NCBI RefSeq assembly: GCF_014217565.1
Contig: NZ_CP043661.1
Location: forward strand, 7,378,001-7,442,000
Length of the DNA: 64,000 bases
Direction: 5' to 3'
From: Kribbella qitaiheensis
GTDB lineage: Bacteria > Actinomycetota > Actinomycetes > Propionibacteriales > Kribbellaceae
Shown: positions 44,971 to 62,100 of the stretch, piece after piece
Position numbering within the stretch: the first letter of the stretch is position 1
Layout of the letters: each line of letters starts with the position of its first letter
The notes under the pieces: model-generated
Told to the model about the DNA's origin: nothing
Databases searched by the model: none
Seen by the model: the letters and a program-made list of their open reading frames with translations, nothing else
Made by a program: the position numbers and the translations under genes

Positions 44971-44975
44971 TACTA

Positions 44976-45011
44976 CTTCCTCACCTCGGGCCCAAGCCTG
45001 AGGTGAGGAAG
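44976..45011. terminator. Hairpin terminator after the PhoX relic and WYL regulator
   Basis: 12-bp stem CTTCCTCACCTC (44976-44987) and GAGGTGAGGAAG (45000-45011) with a 12-nt loop, between the relic and the convergent WYL-type gene that ends at 45067. Confidence 0.7.
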
Positions 45012-45066
45012 CCTCCGTGCTCATCGCGGTAGGAGCTGTCTACCGCGCTCCGCCGTGCGGCGGCTC

Positions 45067-46041
45067 TCAGGACGAGGCTTCGTAGCGGGTGGCGATCTCG
45101 GCAGCGCGGTTGCGCAGGGAGGTGCGCAACCATTGCGGGGCCAGGGCTTCTGCGCTCGTGGCGAGCTGCCATAGCGCCCATTCGGCGTGCCGTGAGTCCT
45201 GGAAGGTCACCTCCATCCGCAGCCAGCCGTCTGCGTCGACCTCCTCGGAGCGGACGGCCAGCGCAGTACCCATCAGGTCTTCCCGTCGCGCCGGGTTCAG
45301 TCGTACGAGCACGGCGACCTGGTCGTCGCCGGCCCGGAACCGCGTACTGCGTTCCTGCCAGGCCCTATCCAGATCGACCTGGTCCGGTCGCTGCGCGGGT
45401 TCGTCAAGTTCCTCGGCCGCCAGTACCCGCGACAATCGGTACGTCCGGTCCTCGCCAGATCTCGTGGCCAGCAAATAGCCCTGGTCGCGAACGATGACCA
45501 GGCCGATCGGGTCCACCGTGCGCCACTTCGGGGTCTGGTCCACAGCCGCGTAGTGGATCCGCAGCTTGTGTCCGGCGAAGACTGCGCTCCGGACCTGGGC
45601 CACTACGGCGCTGGGTGCCTCGTCGGCGACGACGCGGCGCGAGAGGAGGTCAGTCTCCGGGTCGATGAGCAGTCGCTGCACCGCGCCGGCCGCGGTGTCC
45701 CGATTGCCTTCGGGGAGTGCGTCGACCACCTTGAGCATGGCCGAAGCGAGCGCCGAGCCGAGGCCGAACGCCTGCGCACCGCGCCGCGATCCGGCAACCA
45801 GCAGCGCGAGCGCCTCGTCATGGTTCAGACCGGTGAGCTCTGTCTGGAATCCGGGCAGCAATGCGAACCCGCCGTGCCGGCCGCGTTCGGCGTAAACCGG
45901 GACGCCGGCTGCGGACAACGCTTCTATGTCGCGCAGCACGGTGCGGGTGGACACCTCCAGCTCGCGGGCCAGGGTGTCCGAGGACAGCTGACCGCGCTGG
46001 CGCAACAGCAGTACCAGCGAGACCAACCGGTCGGCGCGCAT
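45067..46041 (-). CDS. WYL-domain transcriptional regulator (YafY-like)
   Basis: 324 residues. N-terminal winged helix (RADRLVSLVLLLRQRGQLSS, then LEVSTRTVLRDIEALSAAGVP), central linker and a WYL-type domain around 140-215, followed by a WCX-like C-terminal extension. Such proteins often sense ligands such as nucleic acids or metabolites. It is divergent from ridA and a palindrome typical of this family sits in the 127-bp gap, so autorepression and control of ridA are likely. Confidence 0.9.
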   Translation of the reverse strand: MRADRLVSLVLLLRQRGQLSSDTLARELEVSTRTVLRDIEALSAAGVPVYAERGRHGGFALLPGFQTELTGLNHDEALALLVAGSRRGAQAFGLGSALASAMLKVVDALPEGNRDTAAGAVQRLLIDPETDLLSRRVVADEAPSAVVAQVRSAVFAGHKLRIHYAAVDQTPKWRTVDPIGLVIVRDQGYLLATRSGEDRTYRLSRVLAAEELDEPAQRPDQVDLDRAWQERSTRFRAGDDQVAVLVRLNPARREDLMGTALAVRSEEVDADGWLRMEVTFQDSRHAEWALWQLATSAEALAPQWLRTSLRNRAAEIATRYEASS

Positions 46042-46061
46042 ACGAAAACTCTACTGGAATA

Positions 46062-46080
46062 CACGACACAGGGTGTCGTG
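46062..46080. promoter_or_regulatory. Palindromic operator between WYL regulator and ridA
   Basis: Perfect inverted repeat CACGACAC (46062-46069), 3-bp spacer, GTGTCGTG (46073-46080), 21 bp upstream of the regulator start. The position suggests the binding site for the WYL regulator. Confidence 0.75.
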
Positions 46081-46168
46081 ATTCGTTGGCAGGCTGTTCG
46101 CGAGGAGCGGCTACCAAGCCGATGGATGTATGTACTTGTCGACGAATCGGATGGAGCTTGCTGTGGCA

Positions 46169-46564
46169 ATGGAGCGAACGACGGTCAACCCGTGGACGTG
46201 GTCGGTGGAGCTGGGCTACAACCAGGGCGAGATCGTCTCCGGCCAGACCCGGACCCTGTACTGCGCCGGCCAGACCGCGATGAACGGCGAGGGCAAGCCC
46301 GAGCATGACGGTGACATGGCGGCCCAGTTGGCGCTGAGCCTAGACAACCTGGAGGCCATCCTCGGCGAGGCAGGCATGTCCCTCGCGAACCTCGTCCGGC
46401 TCAACGTCTACACCACCGACGTCGATCTACTCTTCCAGCACTATGGCGTACCGGCCTCACGCTTGGGCGCCGCCGGAGTGGCCCCGACCAGCACGATGCT
46501 CGGGGTGACCCGGCTGGCGATCCCCACCCTGATGGTCGAACTCGAGGGCACAGCCGTCGCATGA
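46169..46564 (+). CDS. RidA family protein (enamine/imine deaminase-like)
   Basis: About 131 residues from ATG 46169; ATGs at 46130 and 46151 are in frame. The RidA fold markers are QTRTLYCAGQTAMNGEG, NLEAILGEAGMSLANLVRLN and YTTDVD, with the substrate-arginine in the LVRLN segment. RidA proteins hydrolyse reactive imines from PLP enzymes. It is likely controlled by the divergent WYL regulator. Confidence 0.88.
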   Translation: MERTTVNPWTWSVELGYNQGEIVSGQTRTLYCAGQTAMNGEGKPEHDGDMAAQLALSLDNLEAILGEAGMSLANLVRLNVYTTDVDLLFQHYGVPASRLGAAGVAPTSTMLGVTRLAIPTLMVELEGTAVA

Positions 46565-46598
46565 TGCGCCCGAGCAGCAGGCAGACAGGTGATCTCCG

Positions 46599-47085
46599 GT
46601 GCTGAGGATGGTGACGATCGGCGTCTACGACTGCGACCCCGACTCGTTCCTGCAGGCGCTGCGGGACGCCGACGTCCGCCTGCTGCTCGACATACGCCAG
46701 CGCCGGGGCGTGCGCGGATCGGAGTACGCCTGGGCTAACTCCCGCCGGCTGCAGTCGGCGCTCGCCGATGCGGGGATCGCCTATGAACACCACCCGGAAC
46801 TCGCCCCGACCACTGAGTTGCGCGAGGTCCAGTACGTCGAGGACGACCGCCAGGGCGTCGGCAAGCGCACGCGTCGCGAGCTTGCGGCCGAATTCACCCG
46901 CCGCTACACCACGGAGATCCTCGACCGCGCCGACCTCACACCGATCGTGTCGGCGCTGACGAGCAGTGGAACTGCAGCGCTGCTCCTGCGTCGAACGCGA
47001 CCCCGAGGCTTGCCACCGCTCGCTGATCGCTCAGCGACTAGCCGAGCAGCACCACGTCACGATCGAGCACCTGCGCCCGTTGTGA
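46599..47085 (+). CDS. DUF488 family protein (frameshifted in this sequence)
   Basis: The N-terminal part is VTIGVYDCDPDSFLQALRDA with DIRQRRGVRGSEYAWANSR, typical of DUF488. The family's C-terminal motif, LCVERDPEACHRSLIAQRLA, is present only after removing one base from CTCCTG at 46983-46988; the protein then ends at 47085 with 161 residues. Function is unknown. The GTG start at 46599 has AGGTGA upstream. The context of this shift differs from the GGGCC events. Confidence 0.75.
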
Positions 47086-47103
47086 CGCATAGCGGTGGGC
47101 CGC

Positions 47104-47198
47104 ACCGCCAGCACTCACCAAGCACTGTACGGCGGCGGATCTCCCGCCTGAGAGGACCCGGCCGCCTGACGGTGGGCGGTTTGGTGAGTGCTGGCGGT
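47104..47198. repeat. 18-bp perfect inverted repeat bounding a 59-bp centre
   Basis: ACCGCCAGCACTCACCAA at 47104-47121 is exactly inverted as TTGGTGAGTGCTGGCGGT at 47181-47198. The centre is GC-rich with further GGCGG/CCGCC pairing. The length and symmetry suggest a small palindromic element, such as a MITE-like relic, or a structured 3' region; no target-site duplication is evident. Confidence 0.7.
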
Positions 47199-47254
47199 CC
47201 GCGCCAACTCGGTCGCGGCGATCGGAGGCTTCCGCGAAGCGGGTCGTAGTACAC

Positions 47255-47292
47255 CCCGGGCACGGACGTTCGGGGGAACGTCCGTGCCCGGG
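47255..47292. terminator. Strong hairpin at the end of the hydrazine-type operon
   Basis: Perfect 17-bp stem CCCGGGCACGGACGTTC (47255-47271) and its complement at 47276-47292, with a GGGG loop. It lies 6 bp past the stop of the last minus-strand gene (47298) and would also stop plus-strand reading from DUF488. Confidence 0.85.
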
Positions 47293-47297
47293 ACGGA

Positions 47298-48536
47298 TCA
47301 GGGGGTGTCGATGACTATTGCGGCCTCCATTTCGAGGACTCGTTGGTAGTCGTCGTCGAGGGTGGCTGCGTCGCTGTGGATGAGGATCACCCAGGCCAGG
47401 CAGGTGAAGAGGTCGACCGTTTCGGGGACGATCGCGTCCTCTTCGTGCAGGATCTTCATCCAGTGGAAGGATTTCAGCGACTCGACGTCGGCGAAGACCT
47501 CGCGGTTGCGGAAGTAGCCTTCCCGTACGGCGGAGATGAAGATGCCGCGCAGGTGTTGCACCAGATCGAAGCTGTCTCGCACCTCACCCCGCACCCGATG
47601 CGCGACCGTCCGCTTGATGTGGTTGTCCCCGGTAGCCAACTCGCTGACCATCTGGTGACCACCACCGGCCGGCCGGGCCGCGACCTCGATCAGCCGGGGC
47701 CCATCGGCCGTCATCATCACCTCGGAGTGACCACAGCCGACGCGAATACCAACGGCATCCAATACCTGCTGCGTATAAGGCCACAACGCCAGTACTTCGG
47801 GGTCGTCCGCCGCGAGGAAGTCGATCCGGTGATAGATGCCGATCTTGTCGCCGCGACTCACCTTCGTGTAGCGGCAGACGTCGACGAGCGAGTGCACCCC
47901 GTCAACCGAATAGCTGTCGACCAGATACTCGGTACCGTCGGCATACTCCTGGATCAGGACCGCGTCGTTGGTGAGACCCATCTTGTTGGTCCGGCCGAGT
48001 ACCTGGTCGAAGCGTTCCCGCCAGTTGCCGCCTTCGAAGACGATGTAGACCTCGTCGCCGGCGGCGCTCTTCGGCGGCTTGATCACCAGCCGTTTGCCGA
48101 GCAGGTCGTTCTCCTTCAGCCAGGTCTCGGCCTCGGCCGGGTCCGACGTCAGGAACTGCCGGAGCCGCGGAACACCTGCGGCAGAAAGCGCCTGGGCCAT
48201 CTGCCACTTGTCGCGCCGCGCTGAGGCCAGCGAAGGAACGTTGCCGGTGCCGGGCACCAAAATCTCGGTGAGCTGGTCACAGAGCTCGACCCCACTCTCC
48301 GCCCCCGCCACCAAGTACTCCGGCGAGTAGACCCGCAACTCCGAAGCCAGTGCCTCGACGTCACCGGTGAAATAGTGCACGTGCTCGAAGTCGTCCGGGT
48401 GCCAGCTGGTCGTGTAGGCCGGTGGTGGTTCCAGGCCACTCAGTACTGCGACCGGCACCTGCCCGGCCTCCTTGAAGGCTGCCGGATATTCCTGCCCCGT
48501 GGACAACGGGTCCACGATGATCGTGTAGTTCGACAT
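47298..48536 (-). CDS. ATP-grasp ligase 1 (carboxylate-amine ligase family)
   Basis: 412 residues. ATP-grasp core: RLVIKPPKSAAGDEVYIV (ATP lysine), VLIQEYADGTEYLVDSYSV, and the metal site HSEVMMTADGPRLIEVAARP with the glutamates preserved; the usual Asn of the IEINAR-type motif is Ala here, as in some BacD-like amino-acid ligases. Such enzymes join a carboxylic acid to an amine through an acyl phosphate. It is the last gene of the minus-strand operon, 9 bp after the exporter. I infer it couples the hydrazine unit or an amino acid; the substrates cannot be read from the sequence. Confidence 0.85.
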   Translation of the reverse strand: MSNYTIIVDPLSTGQEYPAAFKEAGQVPVAVLSGLEPPPAYTTSWHPDDFEHVHYFTGDVEALASELRVYSPEYLVAGAESGVELCDQLTEILVPGTGNVPSLASARRDKWQMAQALSAAGVPRLRQFLTSDPAEAETWLKENDLLGKRLVIKPPKSAAGDEVYIVFEGGNWRERFDQVLGRTNKMGLTNDAVLIQEYADGTEYLVDSYSVDGVHSLVDVCRYTKVSRGDKIGIYHRIDFLAADDPEVLALWPYTQQVLDAVGIRVGCGHSEVMMTADGPRLIEVAARPAGGGHQMVSELATGDNHIKRTVAHRVRGEVRDSFDLVQHLRGIFISAVREGYFRNREVFADVESLKSFHWMKILHEEDAIVPETVDLFTCLAWVILIHSDAATLDDDYQRVLEMEAAIVIDTP

Positions 48537-48545
48537 GAGGTCCTC

Positions 48546-49841
48546 CTACGAGCTCTCGCTCGGCAACGGCTCGCTGGCCGGGGTGATGTCCACTGCTGGT
48601 TCCTCTGCGGCTGTGGCTGCTCCGCTGGACATCCCGAAGTACGCGAAGACGATGCCGATCGCGCCGGCCACGCCGCACCAGACCCAGACCCGGGTACCGG
48701 CGTTGTTCCAGACCCACACACCGAGAAAAGGTCCCAGCGCGGAACCGAGGCCGAACATGGCATGCGCGGATCCGACGTACCGGCCGAGCAGTTTCGGGCG
48801 TTCTGCTGCGGCCATGCCCGGGTAGGCGAACATGGTCGGCCCGGCGATGATCTCCGCCAGCGTCCACAACAGCGTGCCGATCACGAAGATCGCGATGCCG
48901 CCCGGCAGGGCGTAGAACGCGAGTCCGCCACCGAGCAGGACGAAACCGATGATCGCGACGATCCGGGCCGGCCAGTGCTGGACCACCTTGGTGACCAGCA
49001 ACTCGCAGGTGATCACGATGAAGCCGTTCAACGCGACGACCGCACTGAACCACCAGGTGGAAAAGCCTTCCGACTTCATGTGCAGCGGAAGGACCGCCAG
49101 GTACTGCATGTAGATCGCCGCGTTGATGAACATGCACGCCAGGAACAGCACGTACTTGTAGTCGCGCAGTACTGCGAGGTACCCGCCCTTCGGCTCGGCC
49201 GCGACCGAGTCGTCGACCGTGTCCGCGACCTCCGCCGTCTTGCGTCCAGGCAGCGCGATGATCGCCACTGCCGCGTACGCCAGCGCCGCAAGGGCTTCAC
49301 CGATGAACAGCAGGTTCCACGAGATCGCGACCAGGGCCGCACCGATCAGCGGAGCTGCCGTCGTACCGAGGTTCATCGCCAGCCGGTAGACCGCGAAGAT
49401 CATCACCTGACGATTCTTCGGTGTCAGCTCGGTCAGCAGGGCAGCCGAAGCCGGCCGGTAGAACTGCCCGACCGCGCCGGCCAGCGCGACCACCACAAGC
49501 ACGGTCGCGTAGTTGGGCACGTAGGCGATCGCGAGGACGAAGCCCGCCATGCCGAACATGCTGATCATCACCGCGGCTCGCGGCCCGACCTTGTCCGACA
49601 GTGAGCCGCCGATGATCAGGCCGATCACCGAGCCGCCGCCGTAGATGCCCAGCGCCGTACCGGCCTGGACCTCGCTGAATCCCTTCGAGGTGGTCAGGAA
49701 CAGCACCAGGAAGACCTGCAGGAACCAGCCGAGCTTGTTCACGAAGACGCCGACGAGCAGCGCCTTCACCGGCAGTGGCGCTTCCCGGATCGTCGACCAG
49801 ATGCCCGTGCTCTCAGCCGAAGGGGCAGAGGCTGCGGTCAT
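48546..49841 (-). CDS. MFS transporter, probable exporter
   Basis: 431 residues with about 12 transmembrane helices and the signature loop GGSLSDKVGPRAAVMIS between helices 2 and 3. The ATG at 49841 overlaps the preceding ATP-grasp stop (ATGA). In a biosynthetic operon this is probably the product exporter and self-resistance gene. C-terminal about 25 residues are a soluble tail. Confidence 0.88.
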   Translation of the reverse strand: MTAASAPSAESTGIWSTIREAPLPVKALLVGVFVNKLGWFLQVFLVLFLTTSKGFSEVQAGTALGIYGGGSVIGLIIGGSLSDKVGPRAAVMISMFGMAGFVLAIAYVPNYATVLVVVALAGAVGQFYRPASAALLTELTPKNRQVMIFAVYRLAMNLGTTAAPLIGAALVAISWNLLFIGEALAALAYAAVAIIALPGRKTAEVADTVDDSVAAEPKGGYLAVLRDYKYVLFLACMFINAAIYMQYLAVLPLHMKSEGFSTWWFSAVVALNGFIVITCELLVTKVVQHWPARIVAIIGFVLLGGGLAFYALPGGIAIFVIGTLLWTLAEIIAGPTMFAYPGMAAAERPKLLGRYVGSAHAMFGLGSALGPFLGVWVWNNAGTRVWVWCGVAGAIGIVFAYFGMSSGAATAAEEPAVDITPASEPLPSESS

Positions 49842-51097
49842 GACGACGACTCCTTCTGATGCCCTGACCAGCTCAGTGCCTTCTCGGCGGCGTCCAGTCC
49901 GGCCCGGCAGTCGTCCAGCGAGGTCGCCACCGCGGTCACATAAGCGATCCGTCCCCAGAGCGTGCCTTCCGGCGGGGGACTGGTGGTCGTCCCCGGCTCC
50001 ATCAGTACGACGAGTTGGTCGATGGTCGCGGGCAGACCGGCCTCGTCGAACGCGACCGAGTCCAGCACGGTGTCGTTCTCGTCCACGTAGAAGAAGCGGA
50101 CGCCACCGACCATCGCGCGATCCGGCACCAGCTCCGGGGTCCGGCCGCACGCCACCGCCGCGGCCGCGAGCCCCGGGTCGGCCCCGGTCGCCTGCAGACC
50201 GAGGTACGGGATCATGTCGCCGCCGATCCGGGCGTTGATCTCGATCACCTTCGGCCCGTCGGCCGTGATCATGATCTCTGTGTGCGTGACGCCGTCGCTG
50301 AACCCGATCGCGGCATGCGCGTCGACCAGCACCTTCATCAGCTCGTGGTCGGCGAGCAAGGGATCGGCCGCGTCGACGAAGTGCCCGACCTCCTCCGCGT
50401 ACGGCGGGTAGCCGAGCTCCTTGCGGGCCAGGCAGAACGGCGTCACCTGGCCGTGGAAGATCGCCGAGTCGATGCTGATCTCGTACCCGTCGGCGAACTC
50501 CTCGACCAGCACCTTGACGTCGTAGTGCGGCGCCTCGGGCACGGTCGTGTCGTGCGCGAACTCCCAGTTGTCCTTCAGCTCCTCGGCCGAGTTCACCTTG
50601 ACCACACCGAGGCTGGCGGCCAGCGCGCGCGGCTTCAGGATCACCGGGTAGCCGAGCTTGTCGGCCGTGACGAGCGCCTCGTCCACGGTGTCGACCAGGA
50701 TCGACTGCGGCTGTGGGACGCCTCGCTCGGCGAGCGCAGTACGGGTGAGGTGTTTGTCCCGGCAGCGGTTGACCATGTCAACGTCGCCGCCCGGGAGGCC
50801 GAGCGTTTCGGCCACGTGGGCGGTCTGCAGGATGCGGGCCTCGTCCCAGCAGAGCACACCGTCGATCGGCTGGTCCGCGTGAAGCTTCTTCGCCGCGACG
50901 ACCAGCGCCTCGGCGTCGAGCGTGCTCTCCAGCACGGTCCAGCCGTCGATGTACTCCTTCTCCCACGACGGTTCCGAGTGCAGGAACATGTGGATCCGGT
51001 ACTGCGGGGCGATGGATCGCAGGATGTACTCGCGGAACAGGCGCATCCCGGTCGCCACCACCAGCAGGTGCGGTCGGTCGATCGGTTCGTCAGTCAT
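49838..51097 (-). CDS. ATP-grasp ligase 2 (carboxylate-amine ligase family)
   Basis: 419 residues. ATP-grasp features: GYPVILKPRALAASLGV with the ATP lysine, KVLVEEFADGYEISIDSAI, and the metal site HTEIMITADGPKVIEINARI with Glu, Glu and Asn intact. ATG 51097 is chosen for its GGAGG seven bases upstream; the frame is open up to 51244 but that part is not protein-like. It shares only fold-level similarity with ATP-grasp 1, so the two probably make different bonds. Overlaps the exporter by 4 bp. Confidence 0.87.
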   Translation of the reverse strand: MTDEPIDRPHLLVVATGMRLFREYILRSIAPQYRIHMFLHSEPSWEKEYIDGWTVLESTLDAEALVVAAKKLHADQPIDGVLCWDEARILQTAHVAETLGLPGGDVDMVNRCRDKHLTRTALAERGVPQPQSILVDTVDEALVTADKLGYPVILKPRALAASLGVVKVNSAEELKDNWEFAHDTTVPEAPHYDVKVLVEEFADGYEISIDSAIFHGQVTPFCLARKELGYPPYAEEVGHFVDAADPLLADHELMKVLVDAHAAIGFSDGVTHTEIMITADGPKVIEINARIGGDMIPYLGLQATGADPGLAAAAVACGRTPELVPDRAMVGGVRFFYVDENDTVLDSVAFDEAGLPATIDQLVVLMEPGTTTSPPPEGTLWGRIAYVTAVATSLDDCRAGLDAAEKALSWSGHQKESSS

Positions 51098-51098
51098 C

Positions 51099-51474
51099 TC
51101 AGACCTCCCGGATTGGTGCCGGGATCTGCTCGATGTACGAGACCCCCGTGCTGCCGTCGTTGCGGCGGAAATGGTCGGCGATCCGGATGTTGCCGCGGAT
51201 GTCGTACGCCGGGATGCTGTGGCACTCGCCGCTGACCAGGTCACCGGGCCGCCGTCAGCAGGCAGTAGGCGGCCTCGATCGAGCCGTCGGACTGCAGGTG
51301 GCCGACCAGCCGCCCGCTGCGCAACGATCCACCGGCGTAGAACTCGGCCCAGATCAGGTCGCCGTCGCGGTGATACTGCCCGTACGGCGTATTCGCGCCG
51401 GCTTCGTCGGGGACCAGCTGGAACCAGACCCCGTCGACATCCGGCGGGTTCGCCTCCGGAACGGCGGCACTCAC
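51099..51474 (-). CDS. Small protein of unknown function (frameshifted in this sequence)
   Basis: From GTG 51474, overlapping the hydroxylase stop (GTGA), it reads VDGVWFQLVPDEAGANTPYG through IEAAYCLLTAA; the frame then breaks at GGGCC 51246-51250. Removing one base continues as GDLVSGECHSIPAYDIRGN to VSYIEQIPAPIREV, stopping at 51101-51099, just before the next ATG, for 124 residues. The beta-rich pattern, ending in an aromatic/charged GDGST-VSYIE block, resembles small stand-alone proteins annotated variously in actinobacteria. I do not assign a function; a role beside the flavoenzymes or ligase is only suggested by position. Confidence 0.65.
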
Positions 51475-52757
51475 CACTTCACCGCGCAGAGCTCGTCGGA
51501 GATCGGGTAGATCTCCCGGTCGAACATGGAGTTGAGCACGATCGCGGCCCGGACCGGTAGTTGCGTCAGGCCCGCATTCGTCAGGCCGTGGCTGTACCGG
51601 CTCGCGTTGAACGAGAAGATCCGGTGCCCGTTCATGCCCTTCCAGCGGATCGAGTAGTCCGGCTCGACCAGCATCTCGCCGTCGTCGTCGTAGTCGATCC
51701 GCTCCCGCAGGTCGTCGTCGAACGGCGCCTGGACGTGCTCGCGGCCGGCGGCGACCACCAGGTGCCGTACCTCGTGCTCCTCGGGCATCTCCGGAGTCGT
51801 GCACCGCAGCCGGATGTTGCCGTCGGCAAGTTGTTCCGCCGAGGTGACGTCGCGGCCGGGCAGCAGCGTGACCGGGAACCGGCCGAGCGTCAGCAGGCCG
51901 TCGTAGTTGCCCTGGTAGAGCGCTCGCAGACCGCCCGGGGTGATCGCGTCGCCGGAGTAGCGGGAGTCCACGATCATCTCGCGGCGCTTGCCGCGGTTCA
52001 GACCCTGCAGGAACTGGATGTGCGACGGCCGGTACAGCTCGTTCGCCATCGGGGAGTCGTCGATACTGCGGAACCACTGGTTCCGGCCGAGCCAGCGGAT
52101 GTCGGTGAAGCCCGAGCCGAGCAGCCGCAGTACACACTCCAGACCGGTCTGGCCGCCGCCGACCACCGCGATCGGCTCGGCCTTGGACGCTTCGAGGCCG
52201 GGCAGCCGGACACCGAGCTCGTCGGCGATGAAGGCCTGCTCGCGATCCAGGCCGCGGACGTACTCCGGCCAGACCGGCCGGGTGCCGAGACCGAGTACGA
52301 GGTGCTCCGACTGCGCTACCGGAGTGCCGTCGACGCAGACCTCGAAGCCGTCGTCGGTGATCGAGATCGAGTCCACCCGGCAGTCGAAGTTGACCACGCC
52401 GAGCCGCTCGGTGGCCCAGGCCAGGTAGCGCTCGTACTCGATCCGGGGCAGGGCGTCGAACTGGGAGTTGATCAGCGCGTAGAGCCGCCCGGAGGTGACC
52501 AGGTAGTTCAGGAACGTCAGTTCGTGCCGTGGATCGACCAGCGAGACCAGGTCCTTCATCCAGCCGGTCTGCATCCGGACCCCGGGGTAGAGCAGTGGCG
52601 TGTGCCAGCCGGCTACCGGGCGGGAATCGAACAGGGCGAGCTTCTCGGTGGTGACGCCCTTGTACAGGGCCGCCAGCGACAGGTTGGACGGACCGGCTCC
52701 GATACCGATCGTGTGGTACCTGGGCGGGTGGCCGTTGCCTCGTTCCGTGATGGTCAT
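51471..52757 (-). CDS. L-lysine N6-hydroxylase-like flavoprotein (Spb38/IucD family)
   Basis: 428 residues from ATG 52757. FAD motif GIGAGPSNLSLAA (18-30), NADPH motif AVVGGGQTGLECVLRLL (about 195-211), DDSPMANELYRP, and the C-terminal RYSHGLTNAGLT region characterise the K_oxygenase N-hydroxylases. It would make N6-hydroxylysine, substrate of the hydrazine synthase. GGAG sits 9 bp before the ATG, supporting separate translation, yet the frame is continuous with the preceding oxidase and has no stop between. Stop overlaps the next gene. Confidence 0.88.
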   Translation of the reverse strand: MTITERGNGHPPRYHTIGIGAGPSNLSLAALYKGVTTEKLALFDSRPVAGWHTPLLYPGVRMQTGWMKDLVSLVDPRHELTFLNYLVTSGRLYALINSQFDALPRIEYERYLAWATERLGVVNFDCRVDSISITDDGFEVCVDGTPVAQSEHLVLGLGTRPVWPEYVRGLDREQAFIADELGVRLPGLEASKAEPIAVVGGGQTGLECVLRLLGSGFTDIRWLGRNQWFRSIDDSPMANELYRPSHIQFLQGLNRGKRREMIVDSRYSGDAITPGGLRALYQGNYDGLLTLGRFPVTLLPGRDVTSAEQLADGNIRLRCTTPEMPEEHEVRHLVVAAGREHVQAPFDDDLRERIDYDDDGEMLVEPDYSIRWKGMNGHRIFSFNASRYSHGLTNAGLTQLPVRAAIVLNSMFDREIYPISDELCAVKW

Positions 52758-53852
52758 GCGCTTGTTCTCCGTCCGCGAAGTGGTGGTGCGCGTGTTTTCT
52801 CCGGTGACGAGCGGCCCGAGCAGGTCGCTCGCTGCCGTCCGGCTTGCGGCCAGCGCGGTTTTCACGCTGCCGCCGGACCCACCGGTGAAAGTGAAGAGCC
52901 GATGTGTGCTGCCGAGTACCGACCAGAGCGTCAGTACGGGCGGATCGGCATAACAGTCGGCGTTGGAGGCCGAGTTCCTGGTCTCCAGCAGCCGTAGGTG
53001 CGGCAGTCGTTCACCCGCGATCCGGACGGCCTCTGCGGCCAGGTCCGGAAGCGGATCAGTACTGCCGGGTGGTACCGACCAGCGGTGGGTGTCGATGCCG
53101 AGGAGGAGCCCTCCGTCGGCGGTCGGACGCCCGTACAGATCGCTGGTCTCGTCGATGAACATGGTCGGCAGGGCGCCGTCCACGTCGTACACGGCGACCT
53201 GGATCGCCTTGGTCCGGTACGGCTCGGCCGGCAACGCGTTGCCCGCGAGCAGTCCCGGCGTCCACGGTCCCGCGGCCACCACGACCAGGTCGTACCGGTT
53301 GCTGTCGCCAGGGGTGCGGCAGCTGACCGAGCCGTCGGGGTGGGGGACCAGACCGAGCACAGGGCCCGGTACGACGTGGCTGTGCGCGCCGCGAGCGAGC
53401 TGCTCGATAACCAGCGAGCGCAACTGGTCAGGCCGAATGAAACCGGCCCGCTTCTCCAGTACGCCGACCGTGCCCTCCGGCAGGCCCTGCCAGCCACGGC
53501 TCCGCAGTGCGGCCCCGTCGATGATCTCGGTGGAGCCCGGGTGCAGGTGTTCCACGTCGTTGACTGCCTGCTCCAGCCCGGCGTACGGCTTGAGTAGATA
53601 GGTGCAGCCCGTCTCGACGTACCCGACCTGCTCCAGCAGGTCAGGGGTCTCGAACAGCTCGGCCAGACTCTCGACAGCCAGTCGCCGCTGCTCCGGGTGA
53701 GTCTCGAAGCCCCGGACGCCGCCACCGGACGCCGCCGTGGCGTCCGTTCCCGGTACGCCGGTGACGAGGTCGACCTCGACGTCCGGATACTCGGTCAGCC
53801 GCCGGGCGAGCAGGGCGCCCGCGATACCGGCCCCGATCACGCAGATCCGCAT
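52758..53852 (-). CDS. D-amino-acid-oxidase-like FAD oxidoreductase (Spb39-like), in frame with the hydroxylase
   Basis: 365 residues before the hydroxylase start. N-terminal GxGxxG motif ICVIGAGIAGALLARRL, a DAO-type core and FTGGSGGSVKTALAA near the end. Spb39-type enzymes oxidatively cleave the lysine-glycine hydrazine to give hydrazinoacetic acid. No stop codon separates it from the hydroxylase, so the two could be one 793-residue protein joined by a short charged linker. But a GGGCC string (52817-52813 on the minus strand) is just before the join; losing one G would end this gene at TGA 52756-52754, an ATGA overlap like its neighbours. Confidence 0.85.
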
Positions 53853-53856
53853 CGCC

Positions 53857-55251
53857 CTACTCGCCTGTCCCGGTCAGGACCGCGCGCAACGAGCCGGTGT
53901 CCCGGACGCCGCCGGCGAGCAGGTCGATCATGATCCGGACCGCCAGCGCCGGGTCGAAACCGGACAGCCGGAGCGCGTCCTCGGCCCTGGCCAGCTCTAT
54001 CTCTGCCAGTGCCGGATGGAATGCCTCCGAACAGACCCGGGTCCCGTCCAGCAATGGGCCCACCCGCTCCGCGAATGCGCGGAACGCTTTCCAGCTGAAG
54101 TCGGTCTGATATCGGTCCGGACGGTCCCACGCCAGGTAAAGCCGGACCATTGCCGGGTCTTCGGTGCGGAGCATTTCATTCGCCGGCACCAGGTGATTCC
54201 GGCTGGTCGAGAACTTGCTTCCGTCGAGCAGGTAGAACTCGTTCACGACCAGGCCGGAAAGGGGTAATGGATTCACCCCGGCGGCCGCCCAGATCGCCTG
54301 CCAGTACACGGCGTACCAGTACGCGTTGTCGAGGCCGAGGAAGTGCCAGAGGCTTTCCACCCGGCCGAGTGCGACCAGGTATCCGGGCAGATCGGCGGCG
54401 GCCGGGTCGACCGCTTTGGCGACGTTGTAGAGATCGGTCAGGGCGACCTCGGTGTACGGGCCGATCCGCAAGCCGGTCAGGGCGGAGTCGCCCTCGATGC
54501 CCCAGTTCGTCGGGTAGGCCAGCGCGATCTCGGGCAGTTGGCCGGCTAGTTGCCGGCCGATCAGGGCACGGACCTTGGGCGGGAGTTCGGCCCGCAGCCA
54601 CATCTCCGTCATCGCCTCGCGGTGGTCCTCCATCCGGAGTACCGGGACTGTCGCCTGGAAGGGCCGTGGCTCGCCGCCGCACCGGCCGCAGACCGGATCG
54701 ATCATGCTGTCGACGTAGGTGAAGGCCCCGCACTGCTCGCAGGCCCCACCCGCGCCAGGTGCTTTGCAGCTACGGCAGAGGCCGACCAGATACGACTCGT
54801 GCAGGGTCCGCGCGCAGTCCCGGCAGGCGTGCAGCGTGACCTCGCGCATCGGCGTTGCCCCGCTGGCGACCAGGTGATTCATCAGTTGCCGGATGATCGG
54901 CGCGTGCTCGTCGGTGAGCGGATCGCTGAACCGGTCGTAGCCGATCCGGCCCAGCTCGTAGGTCTCCTTGATGTCCGCGCGGAAATCCGCCGTCATCACG
55001 CCGACGTCTACGCCCTCGCGTTCGGCCCGGGTCAGCACGTAGTTCTGGTGGACGTCCAGGCCGGTCGTGACCGCCACCTGTTCGCCACGCGCCCTGGCCG
55101 CGCGGGCTGCGATGTCGGCGGCGAGGTAGGGACCGGCGAGGTGCCCGACATGCAGCGGACCGTTGACGGTCGGCTGCGGGTAGGTGATCACCGTGATCGG
55201 CTCGAGGCCTGGCTCAGGTGCGTCTTGGTCGGGCCCGGCCGGCTCAGGCAT
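53857..55251 (-). CDS. Methionyl-tRNA-synthetase-like hydrazine-forming enzyme (Spb40 C-terminal module)
   Basis: 464 residues. Class I catalytic signatures are HVGH (34-37) and KFSTS (346-350), and the MetRS zinc-knuckle cysteines are retained (CRDC, CRSC, CEQC, CGRC, about 145-205). Only about 110 residues follow KFSTS, too little for a full anticodon-binding domain, so tRNA charging is unlikely. In Spb40, Tri28 and related enzymes such a module is fused to a cupin and condenses N6-hydroxylysine with glycine. Here it is a separate gene that overlaps the cupin by 8 bp. Confidence 0.88.
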   Translation of the reverse strand: MPEPAGPDQDAPEPGLEPITVITYPQPTVNGPLHVGHLAGPYLAADIAARAARARGEQVAVTTGLDVHQNYVLTRAEREGVDVGVMTADFRADIKETYELGRIGYDRFSDPLTDEHAPIIRQLMNHLVASGATPMREVTLHACRDCARTLHESYLVGLCRSCKAPGAGGACEQCGAFTYVDSMIDPVCGRCGGEPRPFQATVPVLRMEDHREAMTEMWLRAELPPKVRALIGRQLAGQLPEIALAYPTNWGIEGDSALTGLRIGPYTEVALTDLYNVAKAVDPAAADLPGYLVALGRVESLWHFLGLDNAYWYAVYWQAIWAAAGVNPLPLSGLVVNEFYLLDGSKFSTSRNHLVPANEMLRTEDPAMVRLYLAWDRPDRYQTDFSWKAFRAFAERVGPLLDGTRVCSEAFHPALAEIELARAEDALRLSGFDPALAVRIMIDLLAGGVRDTGSLRAVLTGTGE

Positions 55252-55618
55252 GGTCGGCCGTCACTGCTTCGATCGGTCTTTCTTCGGCGACCGGCATCCA
55301 GTACGCGCTGAAGACCGTCAGCAGTTCGTCGTCCGACCGGTTCTGTACGACGTGCGCCTCGGTGCTGCTGAGCAGGAACGCGTCACCGTGCTTGATCTCG
55401 TGCACGGCATCGCCCACCAGGACGTGCGCCGTACCCGCCACAACGATCGACAGCTCGAGCTCCGGGTGCTGGTCGATCGGGCTCTCCGAACCGGGCGGAA
55501 CGCTGTACCACATTGCCTGGAACGGCATTTGCCCGCCGAGTTCGTATTGCTCCCAGCGAACTACCCGGAGATCTTTCACAAACAGGCTTTCGCCGGTGAT
55601 CAGGTCGAATGTACGCAT
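55244..55618 (-). CDS. Cupin protein (Spb40 N-terminal module as a separate gene)
   Basis: 124 residues, a single cupin fold. Candidate metal ligands are H51, E53 or E55 in DQHPELELSIVV and H89 in SSTEAHVV. In known hydrazine synthases the cupin rearranges the ester made by the MetRS-like partner to form the N-N bond. It is first in the operon; ATG 55618 has GGAGGG nine bases upstream. Its stop lies inside the MetRS-like start region, so the two are coupled, probably forming a complex in place of the fusion. Confidence 0.85.
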   Translation of the reverse strand: MRTFDLITGESLFVKDLRVVRWEQYELGGQMPFQAMWYSVPPGSESPIDQHPELELSIVVAGTAHVLVGDAVHEIKHGDAFLLSSTEAHVVQNRSDDELLTVFSAYWMPVAEERPIEAVTADHA

Positions 55619-55966
55619 GCTTCGCTACCCTCCGTAGCCGATCCGCGACGCGGCTCAAGAAGTTGTTTGAAAATGCAATGAAGGCACGGTCAGACGCTTT
55701 GATTCAGCCATGGATCAGCACCGCACGCCGCTATGGCTCCGACCACCATCGGGACCAGAAGTTCTTGCAGCGTTGGTGATTACCCGGCGACCCCCCAGTC
55801 TCCGTGGCCGAAAATATAGGGAAGGTAGCGCTCCGAGTAAAGGGGAGTACGCAACGAATTCCAGATCACCCGTAACCGGACCGGAAATCCTTCGTTATGA
55901 CACGTTTTTGTGCGCGTTGAGTATCCGATCAGTTGCGGAACGCAACTGGTCTGGCCCGGATCAGGG
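55619..55966. promoter_or_regulatory. Upstream region of the hydrazine-type operon
   Basis: 348 bp without a gene and lower in GC than its surroundings, notably 55800-55920. It must hold the operon promoter. A perfect inverted repeat, CAGTTGCG (55930-55937) and CGCAACTG (55941-55948), is a possible operator. No regulator gene is in the operon, so control may come from elsewhere. Confidence 0.5.
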
Positions 55967-56377
55967 TCAGCTCTGACCTGGGAAGGCCTGCGGAGTGCCG
56001 CCCCAGGTGAGCTGGGCACGGGAAGTGGCGATCAGGGCCTGGACCGCGACTGTCCGGATCGGCTCCTTCTCGGCGGCCTCGACCAGATCGGCGTAGACCA
56101 CCGACAGCCTGCGCTCGATCAGCAGCACCAGCGCCGTGGCAGTCGCCGCGTTGGTGACAGGCTGGGGAAGGTCGTACGCCGGTTCGGCCGCCGCCGGGGT
56201 CTCGCCGGCCTGGACCAGCAGGTCCGACAGTTGGTCCCGGCGTCTGCGGTGCTCCTCGAAGGAAGCCGTGGCCTGGGCGAACCGCGACCCGGAGAGCTTG
56301 CCGCCGGCCACGCCCACGCCGTACAGGGCGGCGTGCTCGCCGGCGATCGCAGCCTGCAGCGCCTCGATCTCGGTCAA
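55967..56377 (-). CDS. Ferritin-like DUF4439 protein
   Basis: About 136 residues from TTG 56377, which overlaps the upstream stop (TTGA). It is all-helical: EIEALQAAIAGEHAALYGVG begins the first helix and the pattern of E/H residues fits DUF4439, a ferritin-like domain. It has no signal peptide itself. Function is unknown; it is paired with a lipoprotein that has a related helical domain. Upstream of, and not part of, the hydrazine-type operon, since 348 bp separate them. Confidence 0.7.
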   Translation of the reverse strand: MTEIEALQAAIAGEHAALYGVGVAGGKLSGSRFAQATASFEEHRRRRDQLSDLLVQAGETPAAAEPAYDLPQPVTNAATATALVLLIERRLSVVYADLVEAAEKEPIRTVAVQALIATSRAQLTWGGTPQAFPGQS

Positions 56378-56961
56378 CTCGACGCCACCTTTTTCTTGCC
56401 CATGACCGTCAGCGTGGCGGCGAGCTGGCTCTCGGCGGCCGCCAGCATCGCGAGCAGCCGGGCAGCTTCGCCGGACACCTTCGCAGCCGCGGTGGCATGG
56501 CTGACCGACAACTTCTGCTCGCGACCGGCCAGGTCTGCCAGTGCGGTGGTGGCGTCCTTCGGCAACGCGGGCAGTTTGCCGGGCTGGGGTGGCTCGAAGC
56601 CCCCGACCTTCTTGAGCTCGGCCGACTGGGCAGCGTGGATCTTCACGCCGATCTCCAGTTGGGTGCGCAGCTTCGGAAAAGCCTGGCTGACCGCGCTGTA
56701 GCGAAGCGACAACTGCTCGACCTGCGTGGCCGCCGCTGTCAGCGCCGCAACGATGACCGGGTCCGTGCTGGGGGCTGGTGGGGTGCTGCCGCCCGGTCCC
56801 TCGGTGACGCCCGGCGTACCGCTTTTGTCTTTCGCGTCCTCGCAGCCGGTGAGCAGGGTCGCGGAAGCGGCCACGACGGCAGCACTCCTGAGAACGGCAC
56901 GGCGCGACGGTCGAGAGGGCTCGGTCTGCACCGCCGAACGATATCCCGGATGGAGGCGCAT
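56374..56961 (-). CDS. Tat-exported lipoprotein with helical domain
   Basis: 195 residues. A twin-arginine signal (SRRAVLRSAAVVAASATLL) ends in a lipobox LLTGC with the lipidated Cys near 40, so the protein should be anchored outside the membrane by LspA action. A Pro/Ser/Thr linker leads to a helical region (about 70-195) that resembles the DUF4439 partner downstream. The two genes overlap by 4 bp. Function unknown. Confidence 0.75.
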   Translation of the reverse strand: MRLHPGYRSAVQTEPSRPSRRAVLRSAAVVAASATLLTGCEDAKDKSGTPGVTEGPGGSTPPAPSTDPVIVAALTAAATQVEQLSLRYSAVSQAFPKLRTQLEIGVKIHAAQSAELKKVGGFEPPQPGKLPALPKDATTALADLAGREQKLSVSHATAAAKVSGEAARLLAMLAAAESQLAATLTVMGKKKVASS

Positions 56962-57076
56962 GGCTGATCCACTCGGCGGGCCGGATAAGGTGGGCTACTG
57001 CCCTCGGCGCGATCGCCGGGGGCGCAACGGGTGACACAGCTATGGGTGACACAACTGGAGAGAGGCAGGTCTACCT

Positions 57077-57592
57077 GTGAGCCGAAAGACTGACCACACG
57101 GACCCTACGAGCCTCGAGAACTTCCTGCGGCCGATCGTCGAGCAGTTCGGTTGCGACCTGGAGGAAGCCGACGTTTCGCCGTTCGGGAAACGACGGCAGC
57201 TGCGGGTCCTGGTGGACCGCGACGGTGGCATCAACCTGGACGACGTCGCCGAGGTGACCCGGGCGATCTCCAAGGCCCTGGACGCCGACGAGGTGATGGG
57301 CAACGGCGCCTACACGCTGGAGGTTTCCAGCCCGGGCGTGGACCGGCCACTCACATTGGCCCGGCACTGGCGCCGCAACGTCACCCGGATGGTCGCCGTC
57401 ACGCTGGTCGGCGGTCACAAGGTGACCGGGCGGATCACCTCCGTCACCGACGACACCGCCGAGCTCGACGTCCGGGGACAGACCCGGACGATCGCGTTCG
57501 CGGACGTGGAGAAGGCCAAGGTCCAGATCGAGTTCAACCGGCCAGCCGGCAACGACGAACCTGCCGCTGACGGCACGGTGGAGGAGAACTGA
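57077..57592 (+). CDS. rimP: Ribosome maturation factor RimP
   Basis: 171 residues, two-domain RimP with [20 protein letters not shown] and the [14 protein letters not shown] block. It helps 30S assembly. GTG 57077 has AGAGAGGCAGG upstream. It starts the rimP-nusA-ylxR-infB-rbfA-truB operon and overlaps nusA by one base (TGATG). Confidence 0.95.
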
Positions 57593-58584
57593 TGGATATC
57601 GACATGGCCGTCCTGCGGTCGCTCGAACGCGAAAAGGACATCGCGTTCGAGATCGTCGTGGAGGCGATCGAGCAGGCGCTGCTGGTCGCCTACCACCGGA
57701 CCGAGGGCGCGCAGCACCAGGCCCGGGTCGAGCTGGACCGCAAGAGCGGGCACGTCACGGTGTACGCCAAGGAGCTCGCCGAGGACGGCACGGTGGCGCG
57801 CGAGTTCGAGGACACGCCCGCCGACTTCGGCCGGATCGCGGCGACCACCGCCAAGCAGGTCATCCTGCAGCGGCTGCGCGACGCCGAGGACGACGTCCGG
57901 TACGGCGAGTTCGCCGGCAAGGAGGGCGACATCCTGTCCGGGATCGTCCAGCAGGGCCGCGACCCGCGCTCGGTGATGGTCGACCTCGGCAAGATCGAGG
58001 CCGTACTGCCGGCACCGGAGCAGGTGCCGGGGGAGAAGTACGAGCACGGTTCCCGGCTGCGCGTCTACGTGGTCGGGGTCCGGAAGGGCTTCAAGGGCCC
58101 CCAGATCACCGTCTCCCGGACGCACCCGAACCTGGTCAAGAAGCTGTTCGCGCTCGAAGTACCGGAGATCGCCGACGGCACCGTCGAGATCACCGCGATC
58201 GCGCGCGAGGCGGGGCACCGGACCAAGATCGCGGTCCGGACGCTGAACCCGTCGGTGAACGGCAAGGGCGCCTGCATCGGCCCGATGGGCCAGCGGGTCC
58301 GCAACATCATGCACGAGCTGCATGGCGAGAAGATCGACATCATCGACCACAGCGACGACCCGGCGACCTTCGTCGGGAACGCGCTGTCGCCCGCGCAGGT
58401 CACCTCTGTCGAGGTCGTGGACGCCGCGGCGCGCGCCGCGCGGGTGGTGGTGCCCGACTACCAGCTCTCGCTGGCGATCGGCAAGGAAGGGCAGAATGCC
58501 CGCCTCGCGGCCCGGCTGACGGGCTGGCGGATCGACATCCGGCCGGATACGGATGTGACTCGTGAGGACGAGAAGGTAGACTGA
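57592..58584 (+). CDS. nusA: Transcription termination/antitermination factor NusA
   Basis: 330 residues. N-terminal RNA-polymerase-binding domain, S1 domain (around 130-200) and two KH domains with [11 protein letters not shown] and [20 protein letters not shown]. It lacks the C-terminal acidic repeats of E. coli NusA, normal for actinobacteria. It works with the other genes of this operon in transcription and translation coupling. Confidence 0.97.
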
Positions 58585-58628
58585 TCTCTCGGTCGGTCGA
58601 CTGAGTCGTCACCACACCCTGAGGAACA

Positions 58629-58922
58629 GTGATCCAAACCGCGGACGCGCGCCCTGAGAAGGTTCGGGAGCGCACCTGCATCGGGTGCCGGAAACGAGCC
58701 AGTCCGACCGATTTGCTGCGGCTGACGGAGTCCGGAGGACATGTCCTCCCGGATCCCGGTCGGCGGGCACCCGGCCGTGGGGCGCACCTGCACCCGGCGA
58801 CCGGATGTCTCGACCTCGCGGAGCGGCGAAAAGCGTTCCCGCGGGCCTTCAAGGTCCCGGGCCCGCTGGACACCTCACTCGTGCGGGAGCACGTCGAGCG
58901 GCAGGACAGCGTCACCAGTTAG
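58629..58922 (+). CDS. ylxR: YlxR family nucleic-acid-binding protein
   Basis: 97 residues. RTCIGCRKRASPTDLLRL and the RRKAFPRAFK region form the YlxR fold (DUF448). It lies between nusA and infB as usual. Its role in RNA or protein binding is not well defined. GTG start follows GAGGAACA. Confidence 0.9.
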   Translation: MIQTADARPEKVRERTCIGCRKRASPTDLLRLTESGGHVLPDPGRRAPGRGAHLHPATGCLDLAERRKAFPRAFKVPGPLDTSLVREHVERQDSVTS

Positions 58923-59026
58923 AAAGCTGTACCGGTTACAAGAAGTGCGGCCACCAGGGCCGCCCGCGGTGGTCCCACAGGGACCGTCGCGACGACATGA
59001 AGGCGGGTCATCGACTCATGACTACT

Positions 59027-59080
59027 CGATGAGTGTCCAAAAGTGATGGATACACAGCGATGAGTGCAATGCGATGAGCA
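59027..59080 (+). repeat. Short repeats in the infB leader
   Basis: CGATGAG occurs at 59027, 59058 and 59072, with a related GTGATGGAT at 59043; the GATG cores are spaced 17, 14 and 14 bp. They lie about 60-100 bp before the infB start. Several contain ATG or ATGAG, so short abortive reading frames or a structured leader are possible. Confidence 0.5.
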
Positions 59081-59132
59081 TGTACGTCAACTAACGGTCC
59101 GCGGCCCCCAGGCTCGGACCAGAGGGAGAGTA

Positions 59133-62100
59133 GTGGCAAAGGTCCGGGTCTACGAGCTCGCGAAAGAGCTCGGAGTTACCAGCAAGGTCGTTCTGACCAG
59201 GCTGAACGACATGGGAGAGTTCGTCCGATCGGCGTCCTCGACGATCGAGGCACCCGTCGTACGACGGTTGGCGGAGGAGTTCGAGAAGAACCCGCCGAAG
59301 AAGCGCGCGGCCAAGAATGCCGCCGCCAGTACATCAGCGGCGCCGCAGGCGACCGCTCCGGTCACCACGGCGGACAAGGCTTCCGAGCCTGCTCCGGCGA
59401 CGCCGGCCCCGGCAGTGGAGACCGAGCGCACCGCGCCGGCCGCCCAGGCCGTGCCGGCTCCGGTCACGACCGAGCCGACGATCACCGAGAAGGCCGCCCC
59501 GGCCCCGACGGCCCCGGCCGCGGGATCGTCCGCGCCGTCGCCGGCCCGTCCGGGTCCGCGTCCTGGCCCGAAGCCGGGTCCGCGCGTCGAGGCCACTCCG
59601 GCCCCGGCCGCGGAGGTTCCGGTGGTAGAGGCTCCGGCCAAGGTCGCGCAGCCTGCTTTCGAGGCGCCCGCGGCCAAGGTCGCCGAGACTCCGGTAGTGG
59701 AGACCCCAGCGGCTCCGGCAGCTTCGGCAGCCGAGACCGAGGCGGCCCCGCGTCCGGCGGCGGACTCCGCGCCGGCTCGCCCGGCACCGCGTCCGGGTAC
59801 CCCGGGCAACGCTCCGCGGCCGGGTGGCAACGCGCCCCGTCCGGGTGCGCCTCGTCCCGGTGGATCGCCCCGTCCGGGTGCTCCGGGTGGGCGCGACGGC
59901 GGCCAGGGTGGCCGTCCGGGCGCTCCGCGTCCGGGCAACAACCCCTTCAGTTCGACCCAGGGCATGCAGCGCGGTGGCGCGCGTCCGGGTCCGGGTGGCG
60001 CTCCGGCGGCCCCGGCTCCGGCTGGTAACAGCCCGGCCGGAATGCCGCCGCGGCCGCCACAGGCCCGTACCGGTGGTACCGACCGGCCGCGTCCGTCCGG
60101 CGGCGTGCCGGGCGCACCGCGTCCGAACCCGGCGATGATGCCGAAGTCTTCAGCCGGCACCTTCACCGGCCGTCCGTCCGGTCCGGGCGGCGGCGGTGGT
60201 GGCGCGGGTGCCGGTGGTGGCGGCCGTGGCCGTCCCGGCGGCGGTTCCGGTGGACCTGGCGCGGGTGCGCGTCCAGGCGGCGGTGGCGGTGGCGGCGGCG
60301 GCTTCCGTCCGGGTGGTGGCCCCAGCGGTCCCCCCGGTGGTGGCGGTGGCGGTCGTCCAGGCCCGGGCAACCGGGGCCGGGGCGGAACACAGGGTGCCTT
60401 CGGGCGTCCGGGTGGTCCGGCCCGTCGTGGTCGCAAGTCCAAGCGCGCCAAGCGCCAGGAATTCGACAACATGCAGGCTCCGGCCGTCGGCGGCGTGCGG
60501 GTCAAGCACGGTAACGGCGAGGTCGTGAAGCTGGCTCGTGGCGCTTCGCTGACGGACTTCGGCGAGAAGGTCGGTATCGATCCGGCCTCGCTGGTCCAGG
60601 TCCTGTTCCACCTCGGTGAGATGGTGACCGCGACCGAGTCCGTGAACGAGGAGACGCTGCAGGTGCTCGGCACCGAGCTGGAGTACGACGTCCAGCTGGT
60701 CTCGCCCGAGGACGAGGACCGCGAGCTGCTCGAGTCGTTCGACATCGACTTCGGTACCAACGACGGCGGCGACGCCGACCTGGCGGCCCGTCCGCCGGTC
60801 GTGACCGTGATGGGTCACGTCGACCACGGTAAGACGAAGCTGCTGGACGCGATCCGGCACGCGAACGTCGTGGCCAAGGAAGCCGGTGGCATCACCCAGC
60901 ACATCGGTGCCTACCAGGTCACCACCGAGGTCGACGGCACCGAGCGCGCCATCACCTTCGTCGACACCCCGGGTCACGAGGCGTTCACCGCCATGCGTGC
61001 TCGTGGTGCGCAGGCCACCGACATCGTCATCCTGGTGGTCGCGGCCGACGACGGCGTGATGCCGCAGACGATCGAGGCACTCAACCACGCCCGGGCGGCG
61101 AACGTCCCGATCGTGGTCGCGGTGAACAAGATCGACGTGCCGAACGCGGACCCGGTCAAGGTGCGCGGTCAGCTGACCGAGTACGGCCTGGTGCCCGAGG
61201 AGTACGGCGGCGACACCATGTTCATCGATGTCTCCGCGAAGGCGCGGATCAACATCGACGGACTGCTCGAGGGCGTCATCCTGACGGCCGACGCGTCGCT
61301 GGATCTGCGGGCCAACCCGGATCAGCCGGCGCAGGGTCTGTCGATCGAGGCGCACCTGGACAAGGGCCGTGGCCCCGTCGCGACCGTGCTGGTCCAGCGC
61401 GGCACGCTGCGGGTCGGCGACTCGATGGTCGCGGGTCCGGCGTACGGCCGGGTCCGGGCGATGCTCGACGAGCACGGCAACAACGTGAAGGAAGCACTGC
61501 CGTCGCGGCCGGTCCTGGTTCAGGGCCTGTCCGGCGTACCGGGCGCCGGCGACAACTTCCTCGTTGTCGACGACGACCGGATGGCCCGCCAGATCGCCGA
61601 GAAGCGTGAAGCGCGAGCCCGTGCCGCCTCGAACGCCAAGCGCCGCGCGCGCCGTACGCTCGAGGACTTCATGGCCTCCATGGAGAAGGGCGAGAGCCAG
61701 GAGCTCCTGCTCATCCTCAAGGGTGACGTGTCCGGTTCGGTGGAAGCACTCGAGGACGCCCTGGTGCGGATCGAGGTCGGCGACGAGGTCAACCTCCGCG
61801 TCATCGACCGCGGTGTCGGTGCGATCAACGAGAACGACGTCAACCTGGCCATCGCGTCGAACGCCGTCATCATCGGCTTCAACGTCCGGCCGGCCGGCAA
61901 GGCCGGCGACCTCGCCGACCGCGAGGGCGTGGATGTCCGGTACTACTCGGTCATCTACTCGGCGATCGACGACATCGAGGCTGCTCTCAAGGGCATGCTC
62001 AAGCCGATCTACGAGGAGTTCAAGCTCGGAACGGCTGAGATCCGCGAGGTCTTCCGCTCGTCCAAGGTCGGCAACATCGCCGGTTGCTGGGTCACCAGCG

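What the first reader, a model, noticed from the sequence alone, without database searches (positions are those of the whole stretch)
53857..55618. Hydrazine synthase split into separate cupin and MetRS-like genes
Known hydrazine synthases of this type, as I recall, are cupin-MetRS fusions. Here the two modules are different genes with an 8-bp overlap and a distinct ribosome site for the cupin. The MetRS-like protein keeps HVGH, KFSTS and zinc cysteines but lacks room for an anticodon-binding domain. The split form could reveal how the ester-forming and N-N-forming steps are shared between partners.
Basis: partly seen in the sequence, partly recalled or inferred. Interest (0 to 1): 0.7.

Follow-up and report, generated by a model that had tools for sequence, protein, structure and literature searches.

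The report
Split hydrazine-forming enzyme pair in Kribbella
These two overlapping genes very probably encode the two halves of a known bacterial nitrogen-nitrogen bond-forming enzyme; two separate genes is a known and apparently older layout, and the fresher features lie next door, in a conserved uncharacterised Kribbella gene cluster with an unusual fused oxidase/hydroxylase.

Summary
The genes are real as described: cupin (55618-55244, minus), MetRS-like (55251-53857), 8-bp overlap, own ribosome site, HVGH, KFSTS, four CxxC pairs. The split is not a sequencing error: it recurs at the same place in 19 of 38 Kribbella genomes. But the premise that known hydrazine synthetases are fusions is wrong. 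Two-gene forms were noted in 2010 (PMC2922099) and reconstituted in 2021 (PMC8664883), and the division of labour (MetRS half makes the ester, zinc cupin makes the N-N bond) is published. The window cupin keeps all four RHS1 zinc/catalytic residues in the same spacing. In my tree the fused forms are one derived clade and split is the older layout. An ortholog of this cupin is solved as PDB 5j7m, named only as a cupin. Less expected: the next gene is a 793-aa fusion of a D-amino-acid-oxidase-like enzyme and a lysine N-hydroxylase, seen only in Kribbella, whose linker carries a codon-level-invariant GGAG...ATG, suggesting a second translation start; the genome also holds a cupin-less MetRS paralog found only in genomes that have this cluster. 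Product unknown; two ATP-grasp ligases and an MFS exporter suggest a secreted hydrazine-containing peptide-like molecule.

The parts
55244..55618 (-). Standalone zinc cupin (124 aa), predicted N-N bond-forming half; D49, H51, E55, H89 correspond to RHS1 D63, H65, E69, H103
   Evidence: residue roles from PMC8664883; ortholog structure 5j7m
55619..55638 (-). Ribosome-binding site of the cupin (GCTACGGAGGGTAGCGAAGC before ATG)
53857..55251 (-). Standalone MetRS-like protein (464 aa), predicted to adenylate an amino acid and esterify it to the N-hydroxyl of the hydroxylated diamine; HVGH, KFSTS, 4 CxxC, short C-terminal tail
55244..55251 (-). 8-bp cupin/MetRS gene overlap (ATGCCTGA)
51471..53852 (-). 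793-aa fusion: DAO-type FAD oxidoreductase (aa 2-341) + lysine/ornithine N-monooxygenase (aa 379-703)
52755..52781 (-). Codon-level-invariant linker block ACTTCGCGGACGGAGAACAAGCGCATG: candidate internal ribosome site (GGAG) and ATG (M366) for a free-standing N-monooxygenase
51099..51474 (-). Small gene (about 120 aa, no Pfam family) between fusion and ATP-grasp; interrupted by a frame shift in this genome, open in several sister genomes
49838..51097 (-). ATP-grasp ligase 1 (about 419 aa from ATG 51097)
48546..49841 (-). MFS exporter (start inferred at ATG 49841, 4-bp overlap with ATP-grasp 1)
47298..48536 (-). ATP-grasp ligase 2 (412 aa; NCBIfam NF005543 at 506 bits; weaker match to dapdiamide A synthase)

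Best explanation
The two genes are the separate halves of a cupin/MetRS-type hydrazine synthetase at the head of a conserved Kribbella natural-product operon. Inferred route by homology: the N-monooxygenase domain of the neighbouring fusion N-hydroxylates lysine (or a related diamine); the MetRS-like protein adenylates an amino acid and transfers it to the N-hydroxyl, giving an unstable ester without any tRNA; the zinc cupin rearranges the ester to the N-N-linked product, with E55 in the role of RHS1 E69; the DAO domain may then cleave the product to a smaller hydrazine; the two ATP-grasp enzymes would join it to other amino acids and the MFS protein export it. Shown here: gene layout, conservation, active-site residues, family placement. 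Inferred: all chemistry, the substrates and the product.
For: Cupin: D49/H51/E55/H89 align with the four RHS1 residues whose mutation kills activity (PMC8664883), and the catalytic Glu is invariant in the alignment. MetRS: with all cupin-associated MetRS-like proteins, including the R. jostii pRHL1 one, apart from canonical MetRS at 100/100; KFSTS shared with them, KFSSS in canonical. N-monooxygenase next door, 230 bits to the R. jostii one by profile. Gene order kept in 19 Kribbella genomes; a genome outside the genus has MetRS-DAO-small-ATP-grasp in the same order plus separate N-monooxygenase and cupin.
Against: No biochemistry on any Kribbella member. The MetRS sits on a long branch (1.5-1.6 changes per site) and is only about 32% identical to the R. 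jostii one. The DAO profile did not find the DAOs beside the fused enzymes at E<=1e-3, so hydrazinoacetate as product is not supported. Substrate pocket residues could not be compared.
Confidence: 0.82

Rival explanations
1. The split is an assembly or sequencing error that breaks one fused gene.
For: The overlap is short; another gene of the same operon is frame-shifted in this genome.
Against: 18 sister genomes also have cupin and MetRS as separate overlapping frames; overlaps printed differ in length (8 or 4 bp), and the cupin keeps its own ribosome site.
Confidence: 0.01
2. The MetRS-like protein is a peptide ligase that joins methionine to modified lysine, as proposed in 2010, and the cupin is a dioxygenase.
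For: Original proposal from gene context (PMC2922099); ATP-grasp ligases in the operon.
Against: The family was later shown to make O-aminoacyl hydroxylamine esters and N-N bonds (PMC8664883); the cupin carries the RHS1 catalytic set.
Confidence: 0.06
3. The cupin/MetRS pair has drifted to another reaction in Kribbella (for example ester or amide formation only), as suggested by the long branch, the very short tail and the cupin-less paralog.
For: Long branch and short tail; paralog B keeps HVGH and KFSTS but has no cupin or N-monooxygenase within about 10 kb.
Against: All four cupin metal/catalytic residues are kept at the A locus, and the cupin and N-monooxygenase are kept in all 19 loci.
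Confidence: 0.1
4. The MetRS-like protein is a spare methionyl-tRNA synthetase.
For: PF09334 match.
Against: Tail of only 114 aa after KFSTS against 254 in the canonical enzyme, which the genome also has; clade separation 100/100; always beside cupin and N-monooxygenase.
Confidence: 0.01

Closest known systems
RHS1 (PDB 5UQP) plus standalone MetRS-like protein of Rhodococcus jostii RHA1 (PMC8664883; locus L068)
   Same: Separate cupin and MetRS-like proteins, same four cupin metal/catalytic residues with the same spacing, N-monooxygenase in the locus
   Different: In L068 the cupin is not directly upstream of the MetRS gene; cupin about 23% and MetRS about 32% identical; no DAO fusion; substrate there is glutamate, here unknown
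Split loci of Deinococcus ficus (L075) and Pantoea ananatis (L074)
   Same: N-monooxygenase, cupin, MetRS overlapping by 4-8 bp, DAO, MFS and ATP-grasp genes; a D. ficus ATP-grasp matches ATP-grasp 1 at 294 bits
   Different: Different MetRS clade, longer MetRS tail, N-monooxygenase and DAO are separate genes; not characterised in the papers read here
Spb40/Tri28/PyrN fused hydrazine synthetases
   Same: Same two modules and chemistry by homology
   Different: One didomain protein; in the tree here the fused type is one derived clade (Spb40, Tri28 and PyrN themselves were not available as sequences)
Afn8/Afn9 (albofungin)
   Same: Separate MetRS-like and cupin genes with a lysine N6-hydroxylase (PMC11705231)
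   Different: Aromatic polyketide pathway; no ATP-grasp peptide ligases described; sequences not compared

Membership tests
Cupin/MetRS-type hydrazine synthetase (split form) | Zinc cupin with RHS1 D63/H65/E69/H103 equivalents, Glu invariant | tested here: met
   D49/H51/E55/H89 (roles)
Cupin/MetRS-type hydrazine synthetase (split form) | MetRS-like catalytic core with HIGH and KMSKS motifs | tested here: met
   HVGH, KFSTS, PF09334 to profile position 372 of 391
Cupin/MetRS-type hydrazine synthetase (split form) | MetRS-like protein in the cupin-associated clade, apart from canonical MetRS | tested here: met
   100/100 separation; exact position inside the clade unsure
Cupin/MetRS-type hydrazine synthetase (split form) | Linked lysine/ornithine N-monooxygenase | tested here: met
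   Lys_Orn_oxgnase 2.8e-65 in the next gene
Cupin/MetRS-type hydrazine synthetase (split form) | tRNA-independent ester formation and N-N bond formation | not testable with these tools
   Needs biochemistry
Spb39-type hydrazine-cleaving oxidase (hydrazinoacetate branch) | Close homology of the DAO domain to DAOs beside fused glycine-type synthetases | tested here: inconclusive
   Window DAO profile did not find the DAOs of L069, L070, L072, L073 at 1e-3; Spb39 itself was not available
Canonical methionyl-tRNA synthetase | Anticodon-binding helical domain after KMSKS | tested here: not met
   114 aa left after KFSTS against 254

The most novel reading that the evidence does not exclude
Kribbella uses the split layout combinatorially: one cupin and one N-hydroxylase, the latter made both fused to the oxidase and, from an internal start at M366, on its own, serve two MetRS-like gatekeepers: A in this operon and the cupin-less paralog B elsewhere in the genome. 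Two different amino acids would then be joined to the same hydroxylamine within one pathway.
Probability: 0.2. Interest if true: 0.55.

Novelty: new member of a known kind. Interest (0 to 1): 0.3.

Why it matters
It corrects the idea that the split is exceptional: in this sample the fused enzymes are the derived form. It gives a likely function to a structural entry named only as a cupin (5j7m), and points to a conserved, uncharacterised hydrazine cluster in Kribbella. The oxidase/N-hydroxylase fusion with a probable internal start, and a cupin-less MetRS paralog confined to genomes with the cluster, make it directly testable whether a split synthetase lets one cupin serve several MetRS partners.

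Tried and rejected
AlphaFold2 of the MetRS-like protein (pLDDT 60) and of the fusion (pLDDT 49) were too poor to use; no fold search was run on them. A complex model of cupin and MetRS was not possible. Substrate assignment by the eight pocket residues reported by Matsuda 2024 was not possible (paper not held). Glycine/hydrazinoacetate by homology of the DAO domain was considered and not supported. Rfam found nothing at 44000-60000. A phylum-wide MetRS search at 1e-75 found only the own genome; the threshold was too strict. The window cupin had no tblastn match in plasmids at 1e-5, though profile search found the related cupins. The script printing gene junctions stopped after six loci, so junctions were read by eye only in those. 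No paper found that describes a DAO/N-monooxygenase fusion or a Kribbella hydrazine cluster, but most subscription papers are not held.

Full report
Observation. Both reading frames are present exactly as described. The MetRS-like gene (55251-53857, minus strand) and the cupin gene (55618-55244) overlap by 8 bp, and the cupin has its own GGAGG ribosome site. Pfam finds tRNA-synt_1g and Cupin_2. HVGH, KFSTS and four CxxC pairs are intact.

Not an error, not chance. The window's own genus gave 38 genomes; 19 carry the cluster, each beside rimP and nusA, in the order cupin, MetRS-like, DAO-monooxygenase fusion, ATP-grasp 1, MFS, ATP-grasp 2. Cupin and MetRS-like genes are separate frames in all of them. 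In one of the 19 (G006, L057) the MetRS-like gene itself looks damaged. The genus is Kribbella: named GTDB records match these contigs by length and coordinates.

What it is. The R. jostii cupin RHS1 is the published reference for a standalone N-N-forming cupin: zinc ligands D63, H65, E69, H103, all essential (PMC8664883). The R. jostii plasmid locus was retrieved (L068); the alignment puts window D49, H51, E55 and H89 on these four residues, with the same spacing. The cupin of sister genome G009 is identical over 120 residues to PDB 5j7m, named there 'Cupin 2 conserved barrel domain protein'; a literature search for that entry together with Kribbella flavida or cupin found nothing.

Family tree. 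In two maximum-likelihood trees the window MetRS groups with all cupin-associated MetRS-like proteins, 100/100 apart from canonical MetRS. The five fused proteins (R. rhizogenes, S. meliloti, Embleya, two Streptomyces) form one clade (97-99). Split loci lie on both sides of it: R. jostii, Pantoea, Deinococcus, S. angustmyceticus, a Streptomyces plasmid, Kribbella A, and a second Kribbella type found in 8 genomes that lack A. So split is the older layout in this sample and fusion arose once. Long branches make the exact sister of Kribbella unsure, and the sample is small.

Prior knowledge. The 2010 comparative study describes standalone cupins next to these MetRS paralogs (PMC2922099). The 2021 study states in its abstract that the enzymes sometimes exist as two standalone proteins, shows that the two domains work when supplied separately, and assigns ester formation to the MetRS part and rearrangement to the cupin. 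The 2024 review lists more pairs and Afn8/Afn9. The finding's main claim to novelty therefore falls.

Division of labour here (inferred). N-hydroxylation by the monooxygenase domain, adenylation and ester formation by the MetRS-like protein, N-N formation by the cupin, possible cleavage by the DAO domain, ligation by the ATP-grasp enzymes, export by the MFS protein. The amino acid is not known: the DAO domain is not closely related to the DAOs beside the fused synthetases, so hydrazinoacetate cannot be assumed.

The DAO-monooxygenase fusion. It occurs in all 19 Kribbella loci, in none of the other Propionibacteriales genomes searched (391 genomes in all), in no other class-level genome searched (394), and only in Kribbella in the GTDB scan (limited to close relatives by two peptide patterns). 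Outside the genus the nearest DAOs stand alone (369 and 373 aa) and end where the Kribbella linker begins. The linker varies in length and sequence except for codons 358-366, ACT TCG CGG ACG GAG AAC AAG CGC ATG, which are nearly invariant in 19 genomes; this region gives the highest synonymous identity of 736 windows (1.0 against a mean of 0.72; residue-matched p = 2e-4, window chosen after the fact). The 27-base motif is found once in the genome. It reads as a GGAG ribosome site 9 nt before M366, which lies 12 residues before the first well-conserved monooxygenase residues. I infer internal initiation; another nucleotide-level signal is not excluded.

Paralog B. The own genome has a second MetRS-like gene (51% identical, G000:C1:2821469-2822818) with HVGH and KFSTS but no detectable related cupin or N-monooxygenase within about 10 kb. 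A homolog of the small gene of the A operon lies beside it in all ten B loci, and an ATP-grasp-like gene in nine (only weak matches to circularly permuted ATP-grasp families). All ten genomes with B also have A; by hand calculation about 2e-4 by chance, without correcting for kinship. In genome G789, outside the genus, one stretch holds a MetRS-like gene equally close to A and B, a DAO, the small gene, ATP-grasp 1, two genes related to the B-locus ATP-grasp-like gene, MFS, cupin and N-monooxygenase. This suggests that A and B belong to one pathway.

Verdict. The cluster is an uncharacterised member with two details worth a test: the fusion with a probable internal start and the cupin-less paralog.

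Noticed in passing
window 51099-51474 (-): Small conserved gene without Pfam family is frame-shifted in this genome but open in several sister loci (e.g. L040, L041, L045); a homolog lies beside MetRS paralog B in all ten B loci.
   Followed up: partly
G000:C1:2821469-2822818 (L039, L067): Second MetRS-like paralog without nearby cupin or N-monooxygenase, in 10 of 38 Kribbella genomes, all of which also have the A cluster.
   Followed up: partly
L028-L035: Eight Kribbella genomes lacking the A cluster carry another split cupin-MetRS-DAO locus of the Deinococcus/Pantoea type.
   Followed up: partly
L072 (Streptomyces sp. SAT1 plasmid, 1-8644): Fused hydrazine synthetase beside lysine 2,3-aminomutase, a PGM1-type peptide ligase and a methyltransferase: from memory this looks negamycin-like.
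   Followed up: no
L128 (genome G789): Unnamed actinobacterial genome with a combined cluster: MetRS-DAO-small-ATP-grasp 1, two genes related to the B-locus ATP-grasp-like gene, two further ATP-grasp genes, MFS, N-monooxygenase, cupin.
   Followed up: partly
L057 4595-5897: In genome G006 (contig matches Kribbella capetownensis) the A MetRS-like gene looks damaged: a segment is missing and its end lies in another frame.
   Followed up: no
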